In this document: positions 2,604 to 15,107 of the stretch, in pieces | How positions within the stretch are numbered: position 1 is the stretch's first letter | How the letters are laid out: every line of letters starts with the position of its first letter | Source: Leifsonia xyli subsp. cynodontis DSM 46306 | Lineage (GTDB): Bacteria; Actinomycetota; Actinomycetes; Actinomycetales; Microbacteriaceae | Direction of reading: 5' to 3' | DNA: 64,000 bases | Assembly: GCF_000470775.1 (NCBI RefSeq) | Contig: NC_022438.1 | Span: forward strand, 2,232,001-2,296,000 | The notes under the pieces: model-generated | Databases searched by the model: none | What the model was told of the DNA's origin: nothing | Seen by the model: only the letters and a program-made list of their open reading frames with translations | Made by a program: the position numbers and the translations under genes

Positions 2604-5081
2604 TCACCGCGTCCCCGGGTTGGACGGAGCGGGCTGCTCCTCGAGGAAGGTCGCCCCCAGGATCTCGCGGACGACAGCCTCGCCATAGCGCTGCGGGGCC
2701 TGGAAGGTGGGGGTGCGCGTACCGGTGGCCGGTGCGGCCGCAGGAGCGGTGCGCAGCGCCGGATGCTGCGCCGGAGCCGTGGACGGGGCAGGAGCCGAGC
2801 CAGCGGGAGGAGGAGGGACAACCGCTCCGTCTTCGTCGGGCTCCTTTGGGAAGTCGGGCTCCTCCGGGAAGTCGGGCTCGAACGGCGGCTCGGTCTCCTC
2901 CGGCGGAACATCGTCGGAGAGAGGCGTGTCACCGCGGGGCGGGATGCCGGCTCGGGATGCGACTGGAACAGCGGCGGGCTCGGGCCGTTCGAGGGTCACG
3001 ACAGCGGACGCCGCCCCCACCGGTTCCGCAACAGGAATGGCGACGGTCGCCCACTCAGTCACTGGCCCGGAGGACGGCGCGGCGGCCGAACGCGATGCCG
3101 CCCGGGCGGCTCCCGACGCCTCCGCGCCAGCGTCCGCCGCGACGCCGGACCCGGAGATCTCGGGCGGAGCCTTCGCCGACGGCGACGCACCGGGCGCCGG
3201 GCGTCCCGACACCGGCGATCCCGAGGACAGGTCTTCGGAGGCGAGGCGATCGGGAACGCCGTCCGACGGTCCCCCGCCCCCGTGCGGCGCAGCGCCGGGG
3301 CCGCCCGCCCCGGGCCAGGCCTCGGCCGCGGGAACCGCCTGCGCACCCGGGCCCGACGAACCGGAACCGCCGTCGGCGCGGGCGATGAACTTCACCCGGA
3401 TTCCCAGGATGTCCACGATGGCCTGGCGGAGATACTCGCTGACGCCCTGGGTGCCCGGCGACGGAGGCTGCCGGAAACTCTGGACGTCGTTGTCGCTCGG
3501 GAAGGACAGCGTGAGCACGTCATCGCTGAGGGCGCGCACCTGTGCGGTGAAGACGACCATCCAAGCGCTGCGTTTGGCGCGCTGGACAGCATCCAGAATC
3601 TGCGGCCAAGAGTCCTTGACCTGCTGCGTCGTCACCGGACCGATCGGCGGCGCGGTGACGGCTTCGGCCGGAGCGACCGCTGCAGGCTCCGGCTGTGGTT
3701 CCACCACCGCATCCGGCTCCGGCGCAGCTTCCTCGGCCCTCGCCGGCTGCTCCGTCCTCGCCGGCGGCTGCACCCCCGCAGTCGGCTCCGCCTTCGCAGC
3801 AGGCTCCGCCGCACGAATCGCCGGGGGCTCCGGAGCGGGCGCGCTGCGGGTCGCCGGCGCCGCAACCGCAGGCGCCGTGCCCCTCGTCGGCCCACCGCCC
3901 GCGGCATCGCTCACGCCCACCCGGCGCTCCAGCCGCTCGACCCGGGCCAGCGCACCGCGCTCGGTGTCGTCGCCCGACGGCACCAGCACACGGGCGATCA
4001 TGAGCTCCAGGTGCAGGCGCGGCGAGGTCGCGCCGGTCATCTCGGTCAGCGCGGCGTTCACGATGTCGGCGGAGCGGCTGAGCTCGGCCGCACCGAACAT
4101 CATCGCCTGCATGCCCATCTTGTCCAGTTCGTCGGCGGGGACGCCTCGGAGGACGGCGGCGGCGCCCTCGACGCTGGTCGCCGCGACGACGATCAGATCG
4201 CGCAGACGTTCGAGCAGGTCGTCCACGAAGCGGCGCGGGTCCTGTCCGGTCTGGATGACGCGGTCGACGGCCGCGAAGGCCCCGGCCGCATCCCGGGCGG
4301 CAATGGCGTCCACGACCTCGTCGAGCAGAGCCGCGTGCGTGTAGCCGAGGAGCGCGACGGCCCGCTCATACTCGATGGAACTGCCCTCGGAGCCCGCCAT
4401 CAGCTGGTCGAGCAGCGAGAGGGTGTCGCGGGGCGAGCCGCCGCCGGCGCGGACGACGAGCGGGAGCACGCCGGGCGCGACGGTCATCCCCTCGCTGTCG
4501 CAGAGGCCCTGGACGTACTCGAGCATCTGCGCAGGGGGGACGAGCCGGAACGGGTAGTGGTGCGTCCGGGAGCGGATGGTGCCGATGACCTTCTCCGGCT
4601 CCGTGGTCGCGAAAATGAACTTCACATGCTCCGGCGGCTCCTCCACGATCTTCAGCAGCGCATTGAAACCCTGCGGCGTGACCATGTGCGCTTCATCCAG
4701 GATGAAGAGCTTGTAGCGGTCGCGCGCCGGCGCGAAGATGGCGCGCTCGCGGATGTCGCGGGCGTCGTCCACACCGTTGTGGCTCGCGGCGTCGATCTCG
4801 ACCACGTCGAGCGAGCCGCCGCCATCGCGGCTGAGTTCGACGCAACTCGGGCAGGTGCCGCACGGGGTGTCGGTGGGCCCCTCGGCGCAGTTGAGGCAGC
4901 GGGCCAGGATGCGCGCGGAGGTGGTCTTTCCGCACCCGCGCGGCCCGGAGAACAGATACGCATGATTCACCCGGTTGGTGCGCAGCGCCGTCCTGAGCGG
5001 ATCGGTCACCTGCGACTGGCCGATCATCTCGGTGAAGGTGTCCGGCCGGTAGCGGCGATAGAGAGCGGTGACCACCCCCAC
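2604..5081 (-). CDS. dnaX: DNA polymerase III subunit gamma/tau
   Basis: Clamp-loader ATPase of the replisome. The 825-residue protein has the AAA+ Walker A motif GPRGCGKT (residues 46-53), the zinc-binding cysteines of the family (Cys65, Cys74, Cys77, Cys80) and Walker B with LDEAH. After about residue 380 comes a very long Pro/Ala/Glu-rich tail typical of actinobacterial tau, interrupted by the conserved PolC/DnaB-binding segment (about 480-560). The start is GTG at 5081; a second GTG two codons later gives the more usual VTALYRRYRP start. First gene of the dnaX-recR unit. Confidence 0.95.
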   Translation of the reverse strand: MGVVTALYRRYRPDTFTEMIGQSQVTDPLRTALRTNRVNHAYLFSGPRGCGKTTSARILARCLNCAEGPTDTPCGTCPSCVELSRDGGGSLDVVEIDAASHNGVDDARDIRERAIFAPARDRYKLFILDEAHMVTPQGFNALLKIVEEPPEHVKFIFATTEPEKVIGTIRSRTHHYPFRLVPPAQMLEYVQGLCDSEGMTVAPGVLPLVVRAGGGSPRDTLSLLDQLMAGSEGSSIEYERAVALLGYTHAALLDEVVDAIAARDAAGAFAAVDRVIQTGQDPRRFVDDLLERLRDLIVVAATSVEGAAAVLRGVPADELDKMGMQAMMFGAAELSRSADIVNAALTEMTGATSPRLHLELMIARVLVPSGDDTERGALARVERLERRVGVSDAAGGGPTRGTAPAVAAPATRSAPAPEPPAIRAAEPAAKAEPTAGVQPPARTEQPARAEEAAPEPDAVVEPQPEPAAVAPAEAVTAPPIGPVTTQQVKDSWPQILDAVQRAKRSAWMVVFTAQVRALSDDVLTLSFPSDNDVQSFRQPPSPGTQGVSEYLRQAIVDILGIRVKFIARADGGSGSSGPGAQAVPAAEAWPGAGGPGAAPHGGGGPSDGVPDRLASEDLSSGSPVSGRPAPGASPSAKAPPEISGSGVAADAGAEASGAARAASRSAAAPSSGPVTEWATVAIPVAEPVGAASAVVTLERPEPAAVPVASRAGIPPRGDTPLSDDVPPEETEPPFEPDFPEEPDFPKEPDEDGAVVPPPPAGSAPAPSTAPAQHPALRTAPAAAPATGTRTPTFQAPQRYGEAVVREILGATFLEEQPAPSNPGTR

Positions 5082-5327
5082 ATGCTACTTGCCACGACCG
5101 ACAATGGGGTCAGTCTGAGGGGACCCGCCGACCTCGAAGGTGGTATCCGCGCCGCGCTAGGAGTTGTCACCGACAAGCGGCTCCTCCGTCGCCATATCCC
5201 CCTCTATCCAATCCTGCCGCGTCCAATAGATCCGGGATTTGTGCGATTGATTGACTACGCCAATCCAGAGGAATGGACATCAAAGTCAATGACCTTAAAG
5301 CCTGATTTACTCTTAGTAATAGAATAA
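5082..5327 (+). other. Inter-operon gap with a weak 81-codon open frame
   Basis: Between the dnaX start and the convergent barstar gene there is one open frame (ATG 5082 to stop 5327) with no recognisable domain. Its ATG overlaps the dnaX start region and no ribosome site is visible. GC content drops sharply after about 5170, continuing into the barstar gene. It may be the tail of a lost gene or simply non-coding DNA brought in with the toxin tip. The coding call is weak. Confidence 0.2.
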
Positions 5328-5345
5328 ACCCAAGGCAATTCAGGT

Positions 5346-5804
5346 TCAGTCGATCTCCATTTCTCGGACTAAATCAAGCGTGGCTTTATTTTCGTGTTCA
5401 CCTACTGCCAGCACAGTAATAAAAGCCAGGGCGGCGTGACCCCACCATCCTCCCTGATTCACCGGGTTCGCCCACGATTGTTGAGCCGATCTTATCGACT
5501 GGCCGAGCATCGGGCGCTTTTCTGGCTCATCTACCAGAAGCCGTGAGGGACAATCAATAACGAGGACTATTCCTGATCGAAAATCAAGCTCTACTGGGTC
5601 GGAAAGAAGCTCATCGAAGGCATCCCAATTTCTCCCAAAGTAGTCAGGGAAACGCAATGCACGTGAGAACTCTTCGAACATGTCTTTGACAGTCACACAC
5701 TCCATCGCTGAGAGTTGGACTATAACAAGACCGTCGCGGTGAGCGTCGGCAAGAAAACCATCCAACTCCAACGATGATTTGTGAAAGATAAGAATCGGCT
5801 TCAT
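5346..5804 (-). CDS. Barstar-family immunity protein
   Basis: Predicted cytoplasmic inhibitor of the RNase tip encoded just upstream. The 152-residue protein carries the barstar signature FPDYFGRNWDAFDELLSD (about residues 52-69) after an N-terminal beta-strand/helix segment, and is longer than classical barstar (about 90 residues) at its C-terminus. Its ATG (5802-5804) begins one base after the Rhs stop codon and follows a G-rich ribosome site (GGGGGG), so it is coupled to the toxin. GC content is near 47%, far below neighbouring genes, suggesting the toxin tip and immunity gene arrived as a cassette. The family match is by eye; partner specificity is inferred from position. Confidence 0.85.
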   Translation of the reverse strand: MKPILIFHKSSLELDGFLADAHRDGLVIVQLSAMECVTVKDMFEEFSRALRFPDYFGRNWDAFDELLSDPVELDFRSGIVLVIDCPSRLLVDEPEKRPMLGQSIRSAQQSWANPVNQGGWWGHAALAFITVLAVGEHENKATLDLVREMEID

Positions 5805-5805
5805 A

Positions 5806-8800
5806 TTAGCCCCCCGCAGCACTAGGAAATTTAACAAATGAATTGTAGTGATCGGGCGTATAGTAAGCGCTTCCATCGCTACCTGTGACTGAACGCTGCC
5901 CTCCTCTGTCAACATCCGGGATCCGGGGATTTACGTCCCCCTCCCGATAGCTAGGGCCGTCTGGCAACGCGCCCTCCCTATTGCTAAAGTTTCGGCCTCC
6001 CGCATATCCAGACGGCGGCTTCCCTGTGCTCTCTACAACGTCATCAACCATGGCCGCCTTCGCAGTGGCTGGGCCAAGAGGTGTCGGGGGATTTCTAACA
6101 GGAGCCCTCACGCTGCTAGCAGCGGTTTCTGCTTTTGCGGCTGTGTTCCCAGCGGTGTTGGTTATGACTTTGGATGCGACCGCGCTGAGGGCTTTCCCAG
6201 CCACAGCACCCACAGCCCCACCAACAATACCGCCGACCGCGCCACTCGCGACCGCTGAAGCGAACCCCGCCCCGGTCTTCTTCCCGGGCTTCAACCCGTA
6301 GGTAACCGCACCACCAACCGCACCAGCACCCAGGATCACCGCCCCACACACCCCGAACGTAACCGCAACACACCCCGCCGCACCCGCGATCGCCGCACCA
6401 ACCGCAACAGCCGCCACAACACCCGCACCGATCGCGGCGGCTTTCTGCCAGGTCTTCGGGCTCCAGCTCCAGGGGTTCCACCATTGCTCGGACTTCTTAC
6501 CCGAGCTGCCCTTCGCGCTGGACTTGTCCGTCTTCGAACCACCCGCCACGGCTTTCGGCTTCGATTTCGCGCCGGCCGATTTCGCTGCCGCAGGTTTCCC
6601 CTTGGACTTGTTCGTCTTGGGTTTCAGCCCAGACGGGTCACTGGTAGTGACCGGGTTGTTGTGGGAGTAAGAGTACCCGTTCGACTGCTGCGGGTCGGTC
6701 ATGTCCAGGATCGGGTCGACGGAGAGGAACTTCCCGATCACCGGGTCATACGCCTGAGCACCCAACTGCGTAAGCCCAGTCATCACACTGGTGGGCTTGT
6801 TCAAATACCCATGCTGGCTCCCCCACACGGTTTGAGGCCCGCGCGCGTTGCCGTAGGGGTCAGCGAAGCGGCGGGTGACCTGCCCAGTGGACTGATTCAC
6901 CGCGAGATCCTGCGTACCGTTCATGTCACCGGACAGCCACGTCACAGTGCTGCCGGACACCCCAACCTTGGTGGAGCGTTCCGCAACAGTCACCCCCGCC
7001 ACCGAATACGTCCGGGTCGCGGACGCCGCACTCGCGCCAGGCGCGAGCGTCACTTCGGTCTCCCCCACGAACAGGGTCGTCCCAGCCTTCGGATCCGTCT
7101 GCAGCAGCACGTTCCCGTCAGCGTCATACACCCGGGACTGGGTACCGTCTTTCGTGGACACCGAGGCGAGCTTCCCGGACTCATCCCACGTCAAGGTCTG
7201 CCCCGGACGCGTCACAGTGTTCCCGGCTGCGTCGTAGTCGTACTGTCCACCGGCCACACTCGTCACCGCGTGCGGACGCGCGGCACCCGCCGCCGGATAC
7301 GTGTAGCTGGTGGTGGTGTCCCCGGCTGTGGTGTGCGCGGTGGTGGAGGTGCGGTTCCCCGTCAGCGGGTCGACCGTGTAGCTCGTCCAGTACGGCGCCG
7401 CCCCACCCAGCCCGGCCGTGGTGGGGGTGGGTGCGCAGTCGCTGCTCTTCGGCGTCCACGCTTCGGTGAGCTGGTGGAGGTAGTCATAGCGGAAGCACTG
7501 CGTATCCGCGCCGGCCGCGCCGGTGGTGGAAGAGGTCGGTTTGCCCTTAGCCAACGTGTCGAACGACCACGACGCCAGCAACGCACCACTGGTAGAATCG
7601 GAGTATTTCGCCGTCTTCCGGTTCAACTGGTCATACGTGTACGCCAACACCTGCCCGCGCGCGTCCGTGGTGGACAGCACATTCCCCGCCAGATCATAGA
7701 CACTCACCGTGCGACCGGAGTCCGGGTCGTCGGCGACAACCTGGTTGCCTTTCAGGTCGTACTGCCACGCCCACCTATTGCCCGCAGGATCGACCATGCC
7801 GGTCATCTTCCCGCCCGGGTTGTACTCATACGTGGTGGCCAACCCGGCACCAGCGATCCCCGCTCCCTGGTACTGGACCAGCTTCGTCTTCTCCCCCCGC
7901 GAGTTCGTGAACGTACTCGTCGGGGTGCCCCCAGCCGGTGGCACCATATCGGTGCGATCCGCCCCCGGATACGCATACCTCGTCCGGGACGTCTCATCCC
8001 CATACGTATACAGAACACTCGCGGTAGTCCGCCCCGCCGCATCGAACACCGTGTCCGTGCGGGAAGGCACCTGAGCCATACTCGTCGGCACGAACAGCTT
8101 GCCATTCGGCGCCTCGGTCGCCCAATACGGCCTCGTGGTCGACACCGTCCGACCCTGGGAATCATAAGCCGTGTCCGTGTTCACCCCACCGGAACCGACC
8201 GCGGGCGCCTGCGACTGCACCAGACGGCCGAGACCATCGACCACCTCGATCGTGGTCTTCGTCCCACCCGGGATCAGCGTCTTCGTCGTCACCGTCGATG
8301 CCTGCGTCTGCGACACCCCATAGGCGAACGCGCTCGACGGGGAGGAGGCGTTGTCCGCCTGCGCCCGGTTCGGGAGCCAGACTGCGGTGCGGCGGCCGAG
8401 CGCATCGTACGTCGCCGAGGTGACCTTCCCGTTTTCATCCGTCACTGACAACTCCGCGCCGCGTGCCGGATCCAGCACCGTGCTCGATACCCACCCGACC
8501 GGATTCGTGGTCTCCACCCTCGTCGTCGGGCCCCCCGTAGTGGCGGGCGTGTAGGCGGTCTTCGACACCCGCCCCAACACATCCGTCACCTCAACCGGCC
8601 GCCCCAGGCCGTCGTACACGCTCGTGGAGGCGACCGTCCACGTCTTCGCCGCACCCGACATCTCGGTGACCGCCTCGGTCATGGTCACCTCCCCCCGCGT
8701 CGGCGCCGCACCGACCGCGGCCCCGTCGTAGGCGGTGCGGACTCCGCTGATCAGCCGATCCGCACCCACCGTTCCGGACTGATCACACGCCCCGGAGGTG

Positions 8801-11738
8801 GTCAGCACCTCGGAAACTGAACCGACCAGGTTCGCCGCCGCGTTCACCGCCGCATACACCGTCGTCGCACACGTCGCAGGCGCGTCACTGGACACCACCT
8901 GCTGCGTCACCGACAACCCCCACGCCCCCGCGAACGCCGTGGACGACGTCGTCGTCCGGCTCCCCCCAGTGGACACCGGCTCGCTGGTCACCACCGTCGC
9001 CTCACCGGTATACCACGCGGAATGGTAACCATTGCTCGCCGTCGCCGCCGACATCCACGGCGTCGTCGTGGTCGACACCACCGGACCCCCCCACCCCCAA
9101 CGTGGTCACCTGCTCCCGGACCCGCCCCGCAAAGGGACGCTCATCCGGCACACCCAACACACTCACGGCTTTCGCGCCGCCCGCGGGGGCGGCGCGGTCG
9201 CCGTTCAAGCCGCGGAAAAAGGTGTACTTCGTCACAGCCTGCCCCGCCGGATTCCCCGCACTCCCGACCCGCACCTCGGTGGAATCGAACCCAGCGAAAA
9301 CCGACCAGGAGCGCTTGTCCGCCGCAGACAGCGGGGAGTCGTTGTACCGCCACGCCGGCGTGCCATACAGGTAGGACTTCTCAACCGCGGGAGACCCCGC
9401 ACCACCGTGTTCGGGTTATCGATCACACTCGTGACCACATACTTATGGAACAGATCCTGCTGAACTGCTTGCGGCGGCGTCACCGCCGGACTCCACCACT
9501 GCGAGTAGCAGCGTTTCGTATTATTCTGCGGATTCGCGAAAATCGCCGCCCGATCCCCCGGCACACACTCCTGCCCCGAATAATTCACGCTCACCGTCGC
9601 ACCCAGCTCGGTCTTGATCGAAGAGATCCGCCACTTATCCAACGGCACCAACCCGTCGATCGCCCACACCCGATTCTGCATCGTCGTCCCCGCAAAACTC
9701 ACGGTCGGCTCCGTCAGTGACGTGCCGTTGCTGTAGCCGGTGTGGGTGATGCTGTCCAGCCACAACGCCGCCGACGTGCCATCGCCGGGGGCGGGGAACG
9801 ACTGCTTGAGCTCCTAGGAATCCACATCCTTGTACGACCCACCCGTGAGGACCTGGGTCTTCACGCTGGCGAGCTTCGAGGTGGTCCAGAACGTCGGGGA
9901 AATCTGGGTCGCGCACGAACCCGAGGTGCAGAGCTGGTCGAACGGGACATCCGGATACGCCGCCGCATTCACCGGCTTCACCGCGTTCCCGGCTGTCGGC
10001 TGGGCCATGCACGACTCACCACCCGGATCCGAGCAGCGACCATTCCTGTCATAGGTGTCATAGGAGAAGAACACCTTCCCGCTGGCCGCGTTCGCCCCAT
10101 AGACGGTACGGTGCTGGAGGTCAGGCCGTACTCGATGTGCTCCAACTCACCGCCCCGCGTATAAGCGGTCGCCGTCGACCCGTTTTTGGCGTAGAGGTTC
10201 GTTTGCGCGTTGTAATAGAACGCCTCCGCATTGCCGTGAGTGTCCACCACGTAGTCGAGGTTCCACCGCCACCCCAAGGTGCAGGACGACGCCGCGTGAC
10301 ACGGCTCCCCGACATCGTTCCCGAACACCGGAACACTCCACGCACTATTCGTCACCGGCTTCCCCGCACTCCAGCCAGGAAGCTGATTCAGGCCGAAGAA
10401 ATACTGGGTCCCGTCCGTGGTCGTCATCTGCCAACACGCCGTGTCCGAGGTGCCATTCGCGGCACACAGTCCACCCTTGAGCTCCGTGAAGCGAGTGCCG
10501 TCATCATTGCCCAACCGGTACTGATTCGACCCCGCAACCTGGATCAACTCACCCGAATGCCCCGCGAACGACACTGACGCATTCGCGTTCTTCCAACACA
10601 GGTCCCCACTCGTCCTCACCGCACCACTCGGCCCATCATCCACCGCACACCCCACATAAGAACGCTCGATGAACCCACCCCCCGCCAAAGACCACCCCTC
10701 ACCGACCGCCGACGGCTGATTATTCGTCGACCCCGTCAACCCATCCACCGACTGCGAATCATACGACAACGAAAGATCCGGAGAAGGACCAGCCGCAACC
10801 GGCGGCACCCGCAACGGATACTCCCACGTGAACGTCCCCGTCTGCGCCGACACATCCCACTCACTCGACGGCCTCAACGACGTCGCCGTGAAATCCCCCG
10901 TCCCCCTCCCACCAACCGGCGCCGCCAACGGTATCAACAACACCGGCGCCGAAGACAACACCGGCGCAAGCACCACATCCCCACCCTTCGCCTGGACAGA
11001 CGAGGGGACCGAGTCGGCTGCCTCCACCACCGCCTTCGCGGACTCCGGCGGCTTCACCCCGTCCACCTGCACCCACCGGGCACGCGAAGCATAATCCGCA
11101 CCAAACACCGCATCCAACAACCGCGACGGAACACGCACCCCCACCGACGCCTCACCCTTGCCCCCATCCACCCGCTTCAACTGAACGACCGGGCCGGACA
11201 CACCGAGCTTCTTCGCCCGCTCAGCACTCAAAAACCGTGCCTCAACCTTCCCCGCACTATCCCTCGCCGCAGCCTTCGCCTTCCCCTTACGGGAGACATC
11301 GAGTTGCTTCCTCGCATCCCGAACCGCAACAGGATCCCCCGCCGCAGCCACCGCCACCCCCGACCCACCCAACTCACGCCACGCACCATCCACCACCGTG
11401 GCCCGACCACCACCAACAGAATCGACAACCACCGCACCCAAACCCGCCGAACCATCAGTGACAACCTCATACACCCCCGACAACGCCTCAGCAGACACAA
11501 CTGGCGCCGACACCGGAGAAACACCACCCCCAACCTCGACCCCCGACGCCAGAGAACCCTTCACAACCTTCTCCGACACCAACGGAACCGGCCTCTCACC
11601 AGCAAACACCGGCACACCCTGCACAATCGCCACCACCAACGCCGCAACAGTCGCAACACCGATCGCAGCACGGCGACCAACCACCCCACGGCGACCAACC
11701 ACCCCACGGCGAATAGAACGAGAAGAATCACGCTTCAT
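5806..11738 (-). pseudogene. Rhs-repeat polymorphic toxin with guanyl-specific RNase tip, disrupted
   Basis: A single long Rhs/YD-repeat gene read in four pieces. ATG at 11738 opens a twin-arginine-like, hydrophobic N-terminus (an 18-bp unit repeated at 11671-11706 encodes RRGVVG twice). The frame shifts near 10110, meets TAG at 9814-9816 (SYKDVDS-stop-ELKQ, where Trp is expected), shifts near 9400 and again near 9090, then stays open for 1091 codons to TAA at 5806. That last piece has many YD repeats, the Rhs core end (DPIGKFLSVDPILD-like DPVIGKFLSVDP), hydrophobic glycine-rich segments and a C-terminal microbial RNase domain with catalytic Glu in SNREGALP, Arg in GGQRSVTG and His in YYTPDHYNSF. 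In the RNase Sa/barnase fold these three residues cut RNA after G. The tip is intact although the secretion and shell parts are broken. Confidence 0.88.
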
Positions 11739-11781
11739 TAGGAATCTTTCTGAACTCAACGAAATCACGCAGGAAAACAGG

Positions 11782-14700
11782 TCACGGTTGGGGGACAGGA
11801 CGCTGACGCAACGTCGAATCCGGCAACGCAGCCGGATACACAGAGACATCTGCGACAGCGCCATCGAAGAACTGCGTCGGAATCCCACCGGTGAGAGCCG
11901 AGCCGACCACGACAGCGCCCAAAGCCGGAACATCATCCACCGGAAGCGAGAAGAACACCCGGTTCACAGTGAGGACATCATCCGCGTAAACCACAATCCC
12001 CAACTGCCGATTCACCGCATCCCAGACACCCGAAACCGTCACGAAACCCGGTGTGGTCGAAACCGCCGGTCCCGTCACGCACTTCGTCACCGCCGTGGGG
12101 CCCTGGGCGCGCAGACAGAACTGCCAATTCATTCCCGCCTGCAAAGAGAACCCTGAATCACTCACCCCGCTCCCCGAGACAACCGCCTGCGCCTCCGTCT
12201 GCCCCGACGTCTTCACCCGCGCCGAGACCGTGAACGATTTCGTCGTGTCCACCACACCCGGAGCGGTGGCCGTCGGCTGATACTTCGCCAGGAACCCCCG
12301 CGAGCCCTCGTTCACCGCCCCAGAAGGACAGGCAGAAGTCGTTGTCGTGAAGTAGTCGTTCCCCACCCGGCAGCGGAAGATCTCCACCGCCGTGTACCCG
12401 GCCGGCAGCGCCGAGGCCGAGGCCCACACATACCCGAGAGGCCGCCCCGTTGGACCAGCGCCGTCGCAGTTCGCGGCGCGGGAGAGCATGTTCCCCGCCC
12501 CATACGCGCACGCATACAGCACCTGCGTCCCGGACGGCTGCACAGCACCGGAACCGTACCGGGCAAGCTGCCCGATGGTGGACTCAAGGACGAACCCCGG
12601 CAGGGAAGCAGCGTCCTTCTCTGTTGCGTGCCCCCCACCCGGCTTCGCATAACCGTTCAGCGAAACCATGCCGAGGAACCTCAGCTGTGGGTCCTCACCG
12701 TCCGCACTCGCCCACCCGGCATTCCCGCCGACCGGAATCGACGCCGCTCCGACCCGGTCCGTCAAGGTCATCGCATCCACATCATCCGCACTCCAGACGT
12801 GACCGGTCGACAGATCCGGCAGTTCCGCCCGAACCTCCAGCCCCGCCGCGGACGCCTTCGACACCGAATCGTACGAAACGTTCCCCGCCCTGTCGTATGC
12901 GGCAACCCACAACGTCGAGAGGTCCTCGACCGGAGCGACCCGAATCGTCGTCCGTCCCGACGGATCCGCACAGACAACACGCACCGCGCCCGCCTGTCCC
13001 AGCCCACAATCCGGCAACGCCGACGTGTAACTGGTCACCGGCGCGGCAGGGCTCATCACCGGCCTACCGCCGTTGGTCCACCACACCTGATACCCGGCGA
13101 TGGCGGGTTCCGCAGCAGTGACCACCACATCGAGCGGGCTGCCGACCGTCGCGCCCACCGCATCCACGCTCACCGTCGGCAGTGCCGGTTTCGTGGAATC
13201 CGCCACGAAATAGCACCTCGGGGAAGCAGCCGAATAGTTGATCGTGTCGAAGCCCACCGCCGACCACGCGTATTTCTCCCCGTCCACCAAACAGTTCGCC
13301 GGGATCGTGTACGTCAGGTTCGCGCCCTGAGCCTGGAAAGCCGTCCCCGGGACATCCTGCACCCCATTGGACAGCCGCGTGATCGTGAAGATCGCCGCCG
13401 TGTTCTGCGGGTCCGGGTCCGTCACCGTGACCCCGATCGTCACCGGCGCGCCACCGTAAACATAGACCGGATTGTTCGCATCCGTGCTGCAGGACCGTGC
13501 GGGAGCCGTGAACGCAGGAGCGGCTGGCGTGTTCGGGCGTGAGTTGTACGTCACGATCAACTGGGCATCCCACCGGTAATGTTTACCGGTGAGGGAGCTG
13601 CCCTCATTCTCCGCCCGCAGCGCGAGAGTCTGATACGGGAGCCCCGCGGCAGCAGCATCCTGAATCGCGACAGTGGCCGAGAAACCCACCCACTGCGGGT
13701 CCCGCTGGCACGGACCACCGACGTTGTAAGCCTGCCCGTCGATCGCCCGCACCCACTGCCCCGGGTCGGAATTCCAGGTGAAGCCGACACCGGAGGGCCC
13801 GTACTGCCACAACTGCATCCACGTGCTCGCACAACTGTTCGCCCACGTCTGAACGACATTGAAACGAGCGTTCTGAATCGCCTTCCCGGCAAGGAAACTC
13901 GTATCGAACCGGTAGAACGCCCGAGAGAGGTAGCCGACACCGCCCTGGACCCCGTAGCCGGCGCTGTTCTCCGGCGGATTCAAGTAAGACTGATTCGGAT
14001 ACGCACGATCCGTATACCAGTCGTACTGCAAATAGCCACTCCAATCCGGGTCCACATACAACGGATACGTCACATCACCATCCGTGATCGCACCAATGTC
14101 AAGAACCGACTCCGCACCCGACACGGAACTGGCAACCGCACGCGGCTCCGAACCCCCCGGACTCTCCTCGCTCGCCGCCTCGTGCGACGAGTCCCACCAC
14201 AGCGGCGTCGCCGCCAGAACCGGCTCACCCTCGGCAGGATGCGCCTCCAACGCTCCCGTCTCGGCCGACTCGACCAGGCGCGCACCCGTGACCGTCAAAC
14301 GCAAAGCCGACAACCGCTCATCCGCAGCAGCTTCCGCGTTCTTGACGACCAAAACTTCCCGCATGCCCGCTTTGGTCGCGGTGACCCACAGATTCACACC
14401 GGGAAGAACATCCTTGAACACCGCCGCGTTCTTCTTGACCGTGGGAACAGGAAGGTCACCGTAGGGCCAAGTCTCCGTGATCCACTCGCCCGACACCGAG
14501 CGAACCGACACGATCTGATCCGTGCCACCCCGCCCGATGCGGACCGGAACCGCAGCCACCTTCGGCTCGAACCACTCATCCTCCTCGACCAGCGTCGTGT
14601 CGAGCGTGGTCCACTTCCCCTTGACTTTCGCCTGCTCCGGAACCTGACTGGTCACCGCCTCCATGAGACCGTCAGCACGCACCTTCACCAGCAGGTTCGG

Positions 14701-14946
14701 AGAGCTCTGAGAATCGACCACGACATCATGGCCATACGCCTCCGCGACCGCCCGCGCCGACACCTCATCCGCGGCATGATCCGCATCCACGACCCCCGCC
14801 GACTGCTCAACCGCCGCACCAACCGGCACATCGACAGCCACAAGGCCCGCACACACCACCAGCGCCGCCACCCCACCAGCCACCAACCGAGACCACCCAC
14901 GACCGGACACACATGCCGGAACCCAGCGACTTCTACGAATTTTCAT
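11782..14946 (-). CDS. Secreted DNRLRE/LamG-like protein paired with Rhs
   Basis: Large exported protein of about 1054 residues. A basic N-terminus and hydrophobic stretch (VAGGVAALVVCAGLVAV) form a signal peptide. A DNRLRE-type beta domain follows (about residues 300-430, with DRAYPNQSYLNP and RAFYRFDTSFL), then fibronectin/Ig-like segments, and a C-terminal LamG/concanavalin-like domain (about 910-1050) ending DGAVADVSVYPAALPDSTL. In actinobacteria such proteins commonly precede Rhs genes and are thought to be surface or spike partners. It lies 43 bases before the Rhs start. ATG 14946 is preferred over GTG 14955, though neither has a strong ribosome site. Open throughout, so it may outlive its broken partner. 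Confidence 0.75.
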   Translation of the reverse strand: MKIRRSRWVPACVSGRGWSRLVAGGVAALVVCAGLVAVDVPVGAAVEQSAGVVDADHAADEVSARAVAEAYGHDVVVDSQSSPNLLVKVRADGLMEAVTSQVPEQAKVKGKWTTLDTTLVEEDEWFEPKVAAVPVRIGRGGTDQIVSVRSVSGEWITETWPYGDLPVPTVKKNAAVFKDVLPGVNLWVTATKAGMREVLVVKNAEAAADERLSALRLTVTGARLVESAETGALEAHPAEGEPVLAATPLWWDSSHEAASEESPGGSEPRAVASSVSGAESVLDIGAITDGDVTYPLYVDPDWSGYLQYDWYTDRAYPNQSYLNPPENSAGYGVQGGVGYLSRAFYRFDTSFLAGKAIQNARFNVVQTWANSCASTWMQLWQYGPSGVGFTWNSDPGQWVRAIDGQAYNVGGPCQRDPQWVGFSATVAIQDAAAAGLPYQTLALRAENEGSSLTGKHYRWDAQLIVTYNSRPNTPAAPAFTAPARSCSTDANNPVYVYGGAPVTIGVTVTDPDPQNTAAIFTITRLSNGVQDVPGTAFQAQGANLTYTIPANCLVDGEKYAWSAVGFDTINYSAASPRCYFVADSTKPALPTVSVDAVGATVGSPLDVVVTAAEPAIAGYQVWWTNGGRPVMSPAAPVTSYTSALPDCGLGQAGAVRVVCADPSGRTTIRVAPVEDLSTLWVAAYDRAGNVSYDSVSKASAAGLEVRAELPDLSTGHVWSADDVDAMTLTDRVGAASIPVGGNAGWASADGEDPQLRFLGMVSLNGYAKPGGGHATEKDAASLPGFVLESTIGQLARYGSGAVQPSGTQVLYACAYGAGNMLSRAANCDGAGPTGRPLGYVWASASALPAGYTAVEIFRCRVGNDYFTTTTSACPSGAVNEGSRGFLAKYQPTATAPGVVDTTKSFTVSARVKTSGQTEAQAVVSGSGVSDSGFSLQAGMNWQFCLRAQGPTAVTKCVTGPAVSTTPGFVTVSGVWDAVNRQLGIVVYADDVLTVNRVFFSLPVDDVPALGAVVVGSALTGGIPTQFFDGAVADVSVYPAALPDSTLRQRPVPQP

Positions 14947-15107
14947 AATCGACACTCATCATTGCTTAAAACAAATGCGAAATGAAAATTTCAGAAATAC
15001 TTACATTCGACCCGTAAAGGGTGACAACACCACCAGAGAGCGAACACAGAGGGAAACGAGAGAACGAGCGAGAGCGAACCGCGTCGCCGCGTCCCAGGCC
15101 GAACCGC
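14947..15107 (-). promoter_or_regulatory. AT-rich leader of the Rhs locus
   Basis: The 161 bases between ackA and the DNRLRE/LamG gene are much more AT-rich (14947-15010) than the flanks and contain no gene. They most likely hold the promoter of the toxin locus; no confident -35/-10 pair is assigned. Confidence 0.4.

What the first reader, a model, noticed from the sequence alone, without database searches (positions are those of the whole stretch)
5346..6120. Rhs-delivered guanyl RNase tip with a barstar immunity gene
The last part of the Rhs frame has the RNase Sa/barnase catalytic set (Glu in SNREGALP, Arg in GGQRSVTG, His in TPDHYNSF). The next gene, one base away, carries the barstar signature FPDYFGRNWDAFDELLSD and a 60-residue C-terminal extension. 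This is an actinobacterial contact-dependent toxin/antitoxin pair in a plant-associated lineage.
Basis: partly seen in the sequence, partly recalled or inferred. Interest (0 to 1): 0.8.

Follow-up and report, generated by a model that had tools for sequence, protein, structure and literature searches.

The report
Broken Rhs gene, intact RNase-barstar pair
A grass-inhabiting bacterium keeps an intact RNA-cutting toxin tip and its matching antidote gene at the end of a weapon gene whose delivery part is broken; the toxin-antidote pairing is of a known type.

Summary
The last ~87 residues of the minus-strand Rhs ORF (9081..5806) are a barnase/RNase Sa-type domain (PF00545, E 2.2e-8). The gene one base downstream (5804..5346, 152 aa) is a barstar (PF01337, E 3.3e-16). 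A barstar homologue lies just downstream in 23 of 23 related tip loci. The pairing, Rhs-linked and in actinobacteria, was catalogued in 2012 (PMC3482391, passages).

Corrections: (1) the Glu in SNREG is the guanine-binding one; the general base is the Glu in SYREG. (2) There is no 60-residue C-terminal extension: in a predicted model the barstar fold spans residues 26-133. (3) The Rhs shaft is broken: three frame changes and an in-frame stop lie upstream of the tip ORF, while three relatives have single open frames of 2091-2113 aa. Delivery by this gene is therefore unlikely.

By exact length the genome is Leifsonia xyli subsp. cynodontis. A 6,988-bp stretch holding the broken part is repeated without mismatch 174 kb away, beside a different tip. 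Best reading: a decaying polymorphic-toxin locus with tip and antidote still intact.

The parts
5346..5804 (-). immunity gene, 152 aa, barstar family (PF01337 at residues 29-113; barstar fold at model residues 26-133)
5809..6069 (-). guanyl-RNase tip (residues 1005-1091 of the ORF): NRE Glu at residue 1036, general-base Glu at 1047, Arg at 1059 and 1063, His at 1078
5806..9081 (-). open 1091-aa ORF: YD/RHS repeats, Rhs core (residues 741-819) and RNase tip; no N-terminal delivery part in this frame
9083..10137 (-). broken stretch of the Rhs shaft: homologous text changes frame at about 10.1, 9.4 and 9.1 kb, and there is an in-frame stop at about 9.8 kb
10107..11738 (-). N-terminal Rhs piece; signal-peptide-like start by eye, not tested with a predictor
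11782..14955 (-). preceding 1057-aa ORF with DNRLRE (NF033679) and Laminin_G_3 (PF13385) domains; a similar ORF precedes the Rhs gene in three relatives
7414..14401 (.). 6,988-bp stretch repeated with 0 mismatches and 0 gaps, same orientation, at G000:C1:2413437-2420424
5137..15078 (.). stretch with no counterpart between ackA and dnaX in the 2.58-Mb sister genome G018, which has 188 bp there

Best explanation
This is a decaying Rhs polymorphic-toxin locus. Its C-terminal cassette, a barnase/RNase Sa-type guanyl RNase tip followed by a barstar-type immunity gene, is still open and has its catalytic residues. The shaft that would carry the tip out of the cell is broken. In an unbroken relative the protein would be exported, the tip would enter a neighbouring bacterium and cut its RNA, and the barstar would block the active site in the producer and its kin. 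In this genome the tip probably cannot be exported. The barstar has either outlived its toxin or still protects the cell from leaky tip or from kin that deploy the same tip. Shown: families, residues, gene order, broken frames, duplication. Inferred: activity, delivery, protection.
For: Families and residues. Linkage: 23 of 23 related tip loci have a barstar homologue right downstream, and so do 5 of 7 plasmid records holding a related tip. Breakage. Polymorphism: a second own-genome locus shares 6,988 identical bp and has a different tip. Foreign cassette: G+C 0.497 (immunity) and 0.571 (tip) against 0.665 for the rest of the ORF, with third-position G+C 0.497/0.527 against 0.832. Reduced genome: 2.69 Mb, against 3.6-5.1 Mb in 26 of the 27 other same-genus genomes. 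Parallel: in G011 a barstar ORF follows a broken tip remnant.
Against: No close relatives were available for a test of selection on the tip or the immunity gene. The broken part lies in an exact repeat longer than the mean PacBio read (4,729 bp), so copy-specific sequence could have been blurred in assembly. The tip model is low confidence (pLDDT 67.6). No activity or expression data exist here.
Confidence: 0.72

Rival explanations
1. A working Rhs contact-dependent toxin; the frame changes are sequence or assembly errors in a repeat.
For: The breaks lie inside a 6,988-bp exact repeat, where read correction can blur copies. Five relatives hold open Rhs frames of 2088-2120 aa (G014, G015, G019, G026, G053).
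Against: Three frame changes plus a stop in a genome built from Illumina, PacBio and Sanger BAC data (PMC3820779). Two other same-genus genomes also have split Rhs genes (G005, G018). The paper reports 80 pseudogenes.
Confidence: 0.1
2. With the shaft broken, the tip ORF is translated inside the cell and the pair acts as an RNase/barstar toxin-antitoxin module.
For: Tip and antidote are both open and one base apart. In Salmonella, Rhs toxin-immunity pairs are reported to act as type II TA loci through internal expression (PMC7043789, abstract and section list).
Against: No expression evidence. No sigma-70-like site was found in 5000-9500, but shuffles average only 0.8, so this says little. A tip at the end of a 1091-aa ORF would be made in small amounts.
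Confidence: 0.12
3. A silent tip reservoir: recombination with another Rhs copy could put the RNase tip on a working shaft, as reported for orphan Rhs tips in Salmonella.
For: A 6,988-bp identical stretch is shared with a second Rhs locus carrying a different tip. Orphan-tip recombination is described in PMC3967940 (passages).
Against: The second copy has the same broken stretch and an IS-type integrase ORF inside its Rhs gene, so it offers no working shaft in this genome.
Confidence: 0.06

Closest known systems
Tox-Barnase / Imm-Barstar polymorphic toxins (Zhang et al. 2012, PMC3482391; passages read)
   Same: Barnase-fold RNase tip, adjacent barstar immunity gene in toxin-immunity order, RHS repeats, actinobacterial host
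   Different: Here the shaft is broken by frame changes and a stop
Barnase-barstar of Bacillus (1brs, 2za4) and RNase Sa/Sa2/Sa3 of Streptomyces
   Different: Toxin is the tip of a large Rhs ORF rather than a free secreted RNase; immunity protein has 25 extra N-terminal and 19 extra C-terminal residues
Rhs and barstar pair in Leifsonia-group genome G011 (L040)
   Same: Tip 46% identical and barstar ORF 21 bp after the Rhs stop
   Different: Open 2543-aa Rhs frame with a different shaft (PA14 domains)
Enterobacterial plasmid Rhs tips, e.g. NZ_AP019818
   Same: Tip 46% identical, followed by a barstar-family gene 27% identical over 99% of the 152 aa
   Different: Gram-negative hosts; annotated CDS is open
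Orphan rhs tips of Salmonella (PMC3967940 passages; PMC7043789 abstract)
   Same: Toxin tip plus immunity gene without a working delivery part
   Different: There the fragment is displaced next to a main rhs gene; here the gene itself is broken in place

Membership tests
Barnase/RNase Sa family (PF00545) | Profile score over the curated cut-off | tested here: met
   35.0 bits against 24
Barnase/RNase Sa family (PF00545) | General-base Glu, phosphate-binding Arg, general-acid His | tested here: met
   Aligned with barnase; the Glu, one Arg and the His are invariant in 18 of 18 aligned tips, whereas the NRE Glu is present in 10 of 18. Roles recalled
Barnase/RNase Sa family (PF00545) | Microbial RNase fold | tested here: inconclusive
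Barnase/RNase Sa family (PF00545) | Guanyl-specific RNase activity | not testable with these tools
   needs an assay
Barstar family (PF01337) | Profile score over the curated cut-off | tested here: met
   59.5 bits against 23.4
Barstar family (PF01337) | Barstar fold | tested here: met
Barstar family (PF01337) | Acidic pair of the barnase-binding helix (barstar Asp35 and Asp39, recalled) | tested here: met
   Asp61 and Glu65 lie at these places by the alignment (NWDAFDE against NLDALWD)
Barstar family (PF01337) | Binds the toxin and covers its active site | not testable with these tools
   No complex prediction offered
Working Rhs polymorphic toxin | RHS repeats and Rhs core before a C-terminal tip | tested here: met
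   PF05593 5.1e-27; TIGR03696 3.6e-14
Working Rhs polymorphic toxin | Same shaft with different tips | tested here: met
   Second own-genome locus
Working Rhs polymorphic toxin | One open frame from export signal to tip | tested here: not met
   Three frame changes and one in-frame stop
Working Rhs polymorphic toxin | Contact-dependent killing | not testable with these tools
   needs a competition assay

The most novel reading that the evidence does not exclude
Decay of the shaft has turned an exported Rhs weapon into an intracellular guanyl-RNase/barstar toxin-antitoxin pair in a xylem-dwelling actinobacterium with a reduced genome, and this is why tip and antidote stayed open while the shaft broke.
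Probability: 0.12. Interest if true: 0.5.

Novelty: new member of a known kind. Interest (0 to 1): 0.27.

Why it matters
The pair is one more case of a catalogued toxin-immunity type. The useful part is the state of the locus. It offers a case to test whether an immunity gene outlives the delivery part of its toxin, and whether a stranded RNase tip becomes an internal toxin-antitoxin pair. It also warns that a tip-and-immunity pair read from sequence does not by itself show a working contact-dependent weapon.

Tried and rejected
Rejected as likely: a working delivery protein.

Led nowhere or little: the protein database search with the tip (region 995-1091) gave 1 match among 190 candidates, the own genome's entry; with the immunity protein 1 match among 39 candidates, differing at one residue. 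Length limits of that tool may hide others. The PADLOC scan gave no family for either protein. The promoter scan was uninformative. NCBIfam gave no family for the immunity protein. Near-identity DNA search in plasmids gave one 38-bp match. Paper searches: 'Leifsonia' with 'barstar' gave 0 papers; 'Rhs', 'Leifsonia', 'pseudogene' gave 2, seen as a listing only. I make no claim beyond those searches that the locus is undescribed.

Full report
Observation. On the minus strand, ORF 9081..5806 (1091 aa) carries RHS repeats (PF05593, E 5.1e-27), an Rhs core (TIGR03696, E 3.6e-14) and, in its last part, a Ribonuclease domain (PF00545, residues 1017-1084, 35.0 bits, E 2.2e-8). One base after its stop begins a 152-aa ORF matching Barstar (PF01337, residues 29-113, 59.5 bits, E 3.3e-16). 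The own genome has one barstar match and one PF00545 match, both here.

Linkage. A genome-contig scan found 23 loci encoding relatives of the tip, in Planctomycetes, Nitrospira and other MAGs, Variovorax and Streptomyces-type actinobacteria. In 23 of 23 an ORF matching the window's immunity protein (phmmer, E 4.4e-8 or better, against a small set of downstream ORFs) lies right downstream; where a start was called (22 of 23) the distance is -13 to 27 nt. In plasmids, 5 of 7 records with a related tip have a barstar hit directly after it; 4 are enterobacterial Rhs genes. In genome G011 of the same genus an open 2543-aa Rhs frame ends in a tip 46% identical to this one, with a barstar ORF after it. 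Only 6 of 23 scanned loci show a long frame with several YD-like motifs upstream (crude pattern, loci cut at 4 kb), so the tip is used on other carriers or alone as well.

The shaft is broken. Three relatives have single open Rhs frames of 2091, 2107 and 2113 aa (stop to stop). Mapped on the window, each runs through four reading-frame segments: about 11.6-10.1 kb, 10.1-9.4 kb, 9.4-9.1 kb and 9.1-6.6 kb, that is three frame changes. An in-frame stop lies at about 9.8 kb. About 160 residues of the relatives are also missing near 7.5 kb, in frame. The export-signal-like start near 11.7 kb (by eye) is thus cut off from the tip. Rhs genes are also split in G005 and G018, and open frames of 2114-2120 aa and 2088 aa occur in G015 and G053.

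Host and second copy. The genome length, 2,686,418 bp, equals that published for Leifsonia xyli subsp. [quoted passage not shown] G018, at 2,584,158 bp, is shorter by exactly the 102,260 bp that the paper gives for subsp. xyli. Window 7414-14401 recurs with 0 mismatches over 6,988 bp, 174 kb away, including the broken stretch. Beyond it the second locus has a different tail: an IS-type integrase ORF inside the Rhs gene, a further Rhs core piece with a tip that matches no Pfam family, and a 143-aa ORF without a family that looks hydrophobic. One shaft with two tips is the mark of a polymorphic toxin. The repeat is longer than the mean PacBio read reported (4,729 bp), so exact identity, and whether both copies truly carry all breaks, need new long reads.

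Origin. In G018, ackA and dnaX lie 276 bp apart, and window 5137-15078 has no counterpart there. Five other same-genus genomes have 2.7-4.1 kb of other sequence at this place, without match to the Rhs, DNRLRE or immunity proteins. The immunity gene and tip have much lower G+C (0.497, 0.571) than the rest of the ORF (0.665) or dnaX (0.727), and third-position G+C near 0.5 against 0.83-0.90. The cassette therefore looks acquired later than the shaft.

Mechanism. From established knowledge of barnase and barstar, an active tip would cut RNA after guanine, and barstar would block the active site with an acidic helix; Asp61 and Glu65 stand at its key places (alignment). In this genome delivery is unlikely. 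I think a decaying locus with an antidote not yet lost, or kept for protection, most likely (0.72). An internal toxin-antitoxin role (0.12) has precedent in Salmonella (PMC7043789, abstract and section list). A tip reservoir (0.06) has precedent too (PMC3967940, passages), but the second copy here offers no working shaft.

Parallels. In G011 a second barstar ORF follows a broken tip remnant. Among 10 Streptomyces-type loci, 5 keep one open frame through the shaft part held, 1 has an in-frame stop, 2 spread over several frames, and 2 match only near the tip (draft assemblies).

Novelty. Tox-Barnase with Imm-Barstar, with RHS repeats and in actinobacteria, is listed by Zhang et al. 2012 (PMC3482391, passages). 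This is a new member of that kind, in a broken carrier.

Noticed in passing
L039 1955-4623 (G000:C1 about 2409954-2412622): Second Rhs locus of the same genome: an integrase-core (PF00665) ORF lies inside the Rhs gene, then a tip without a Pfam family and a 143-aa hydrophobic-looking ORF that may be its immunity gene.
   Followed up: partly
window 7414-14401 and G000:C1:2413437-2420424: 6,988 bp identical at two places 174 kb apart: recent duplication, gene conversion or assembly blurring.
   Followed up: partly
L041 1415-2066 (G011): Barstar ORF of 162 aa kept after a broken RNase-tip remnant: an orphan immunity gene.
   Followed up: partly
G019:C1:850594-850857: A barstar match on the opposite strand about 1.5 kb beyond an open Rhs frame that has a different tip.
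   Followed up: no
window about 7520-7536: About 160 residues present in three relatives are missing here, in frame, between similar repeat segments.
   Followed up: no
window 11782-14955: DNRLRE/Laminin_G ORF directly before the Rhs gene; a similar ORF ends just before the Rhs frame in L043, L044 and L045, so the two may work together.
   Followed up: no
L066 and L071 (Streptomyces): Rhs shafts spread over several frames while tip and barstar stay open, as in the window.
   Followed up: partly
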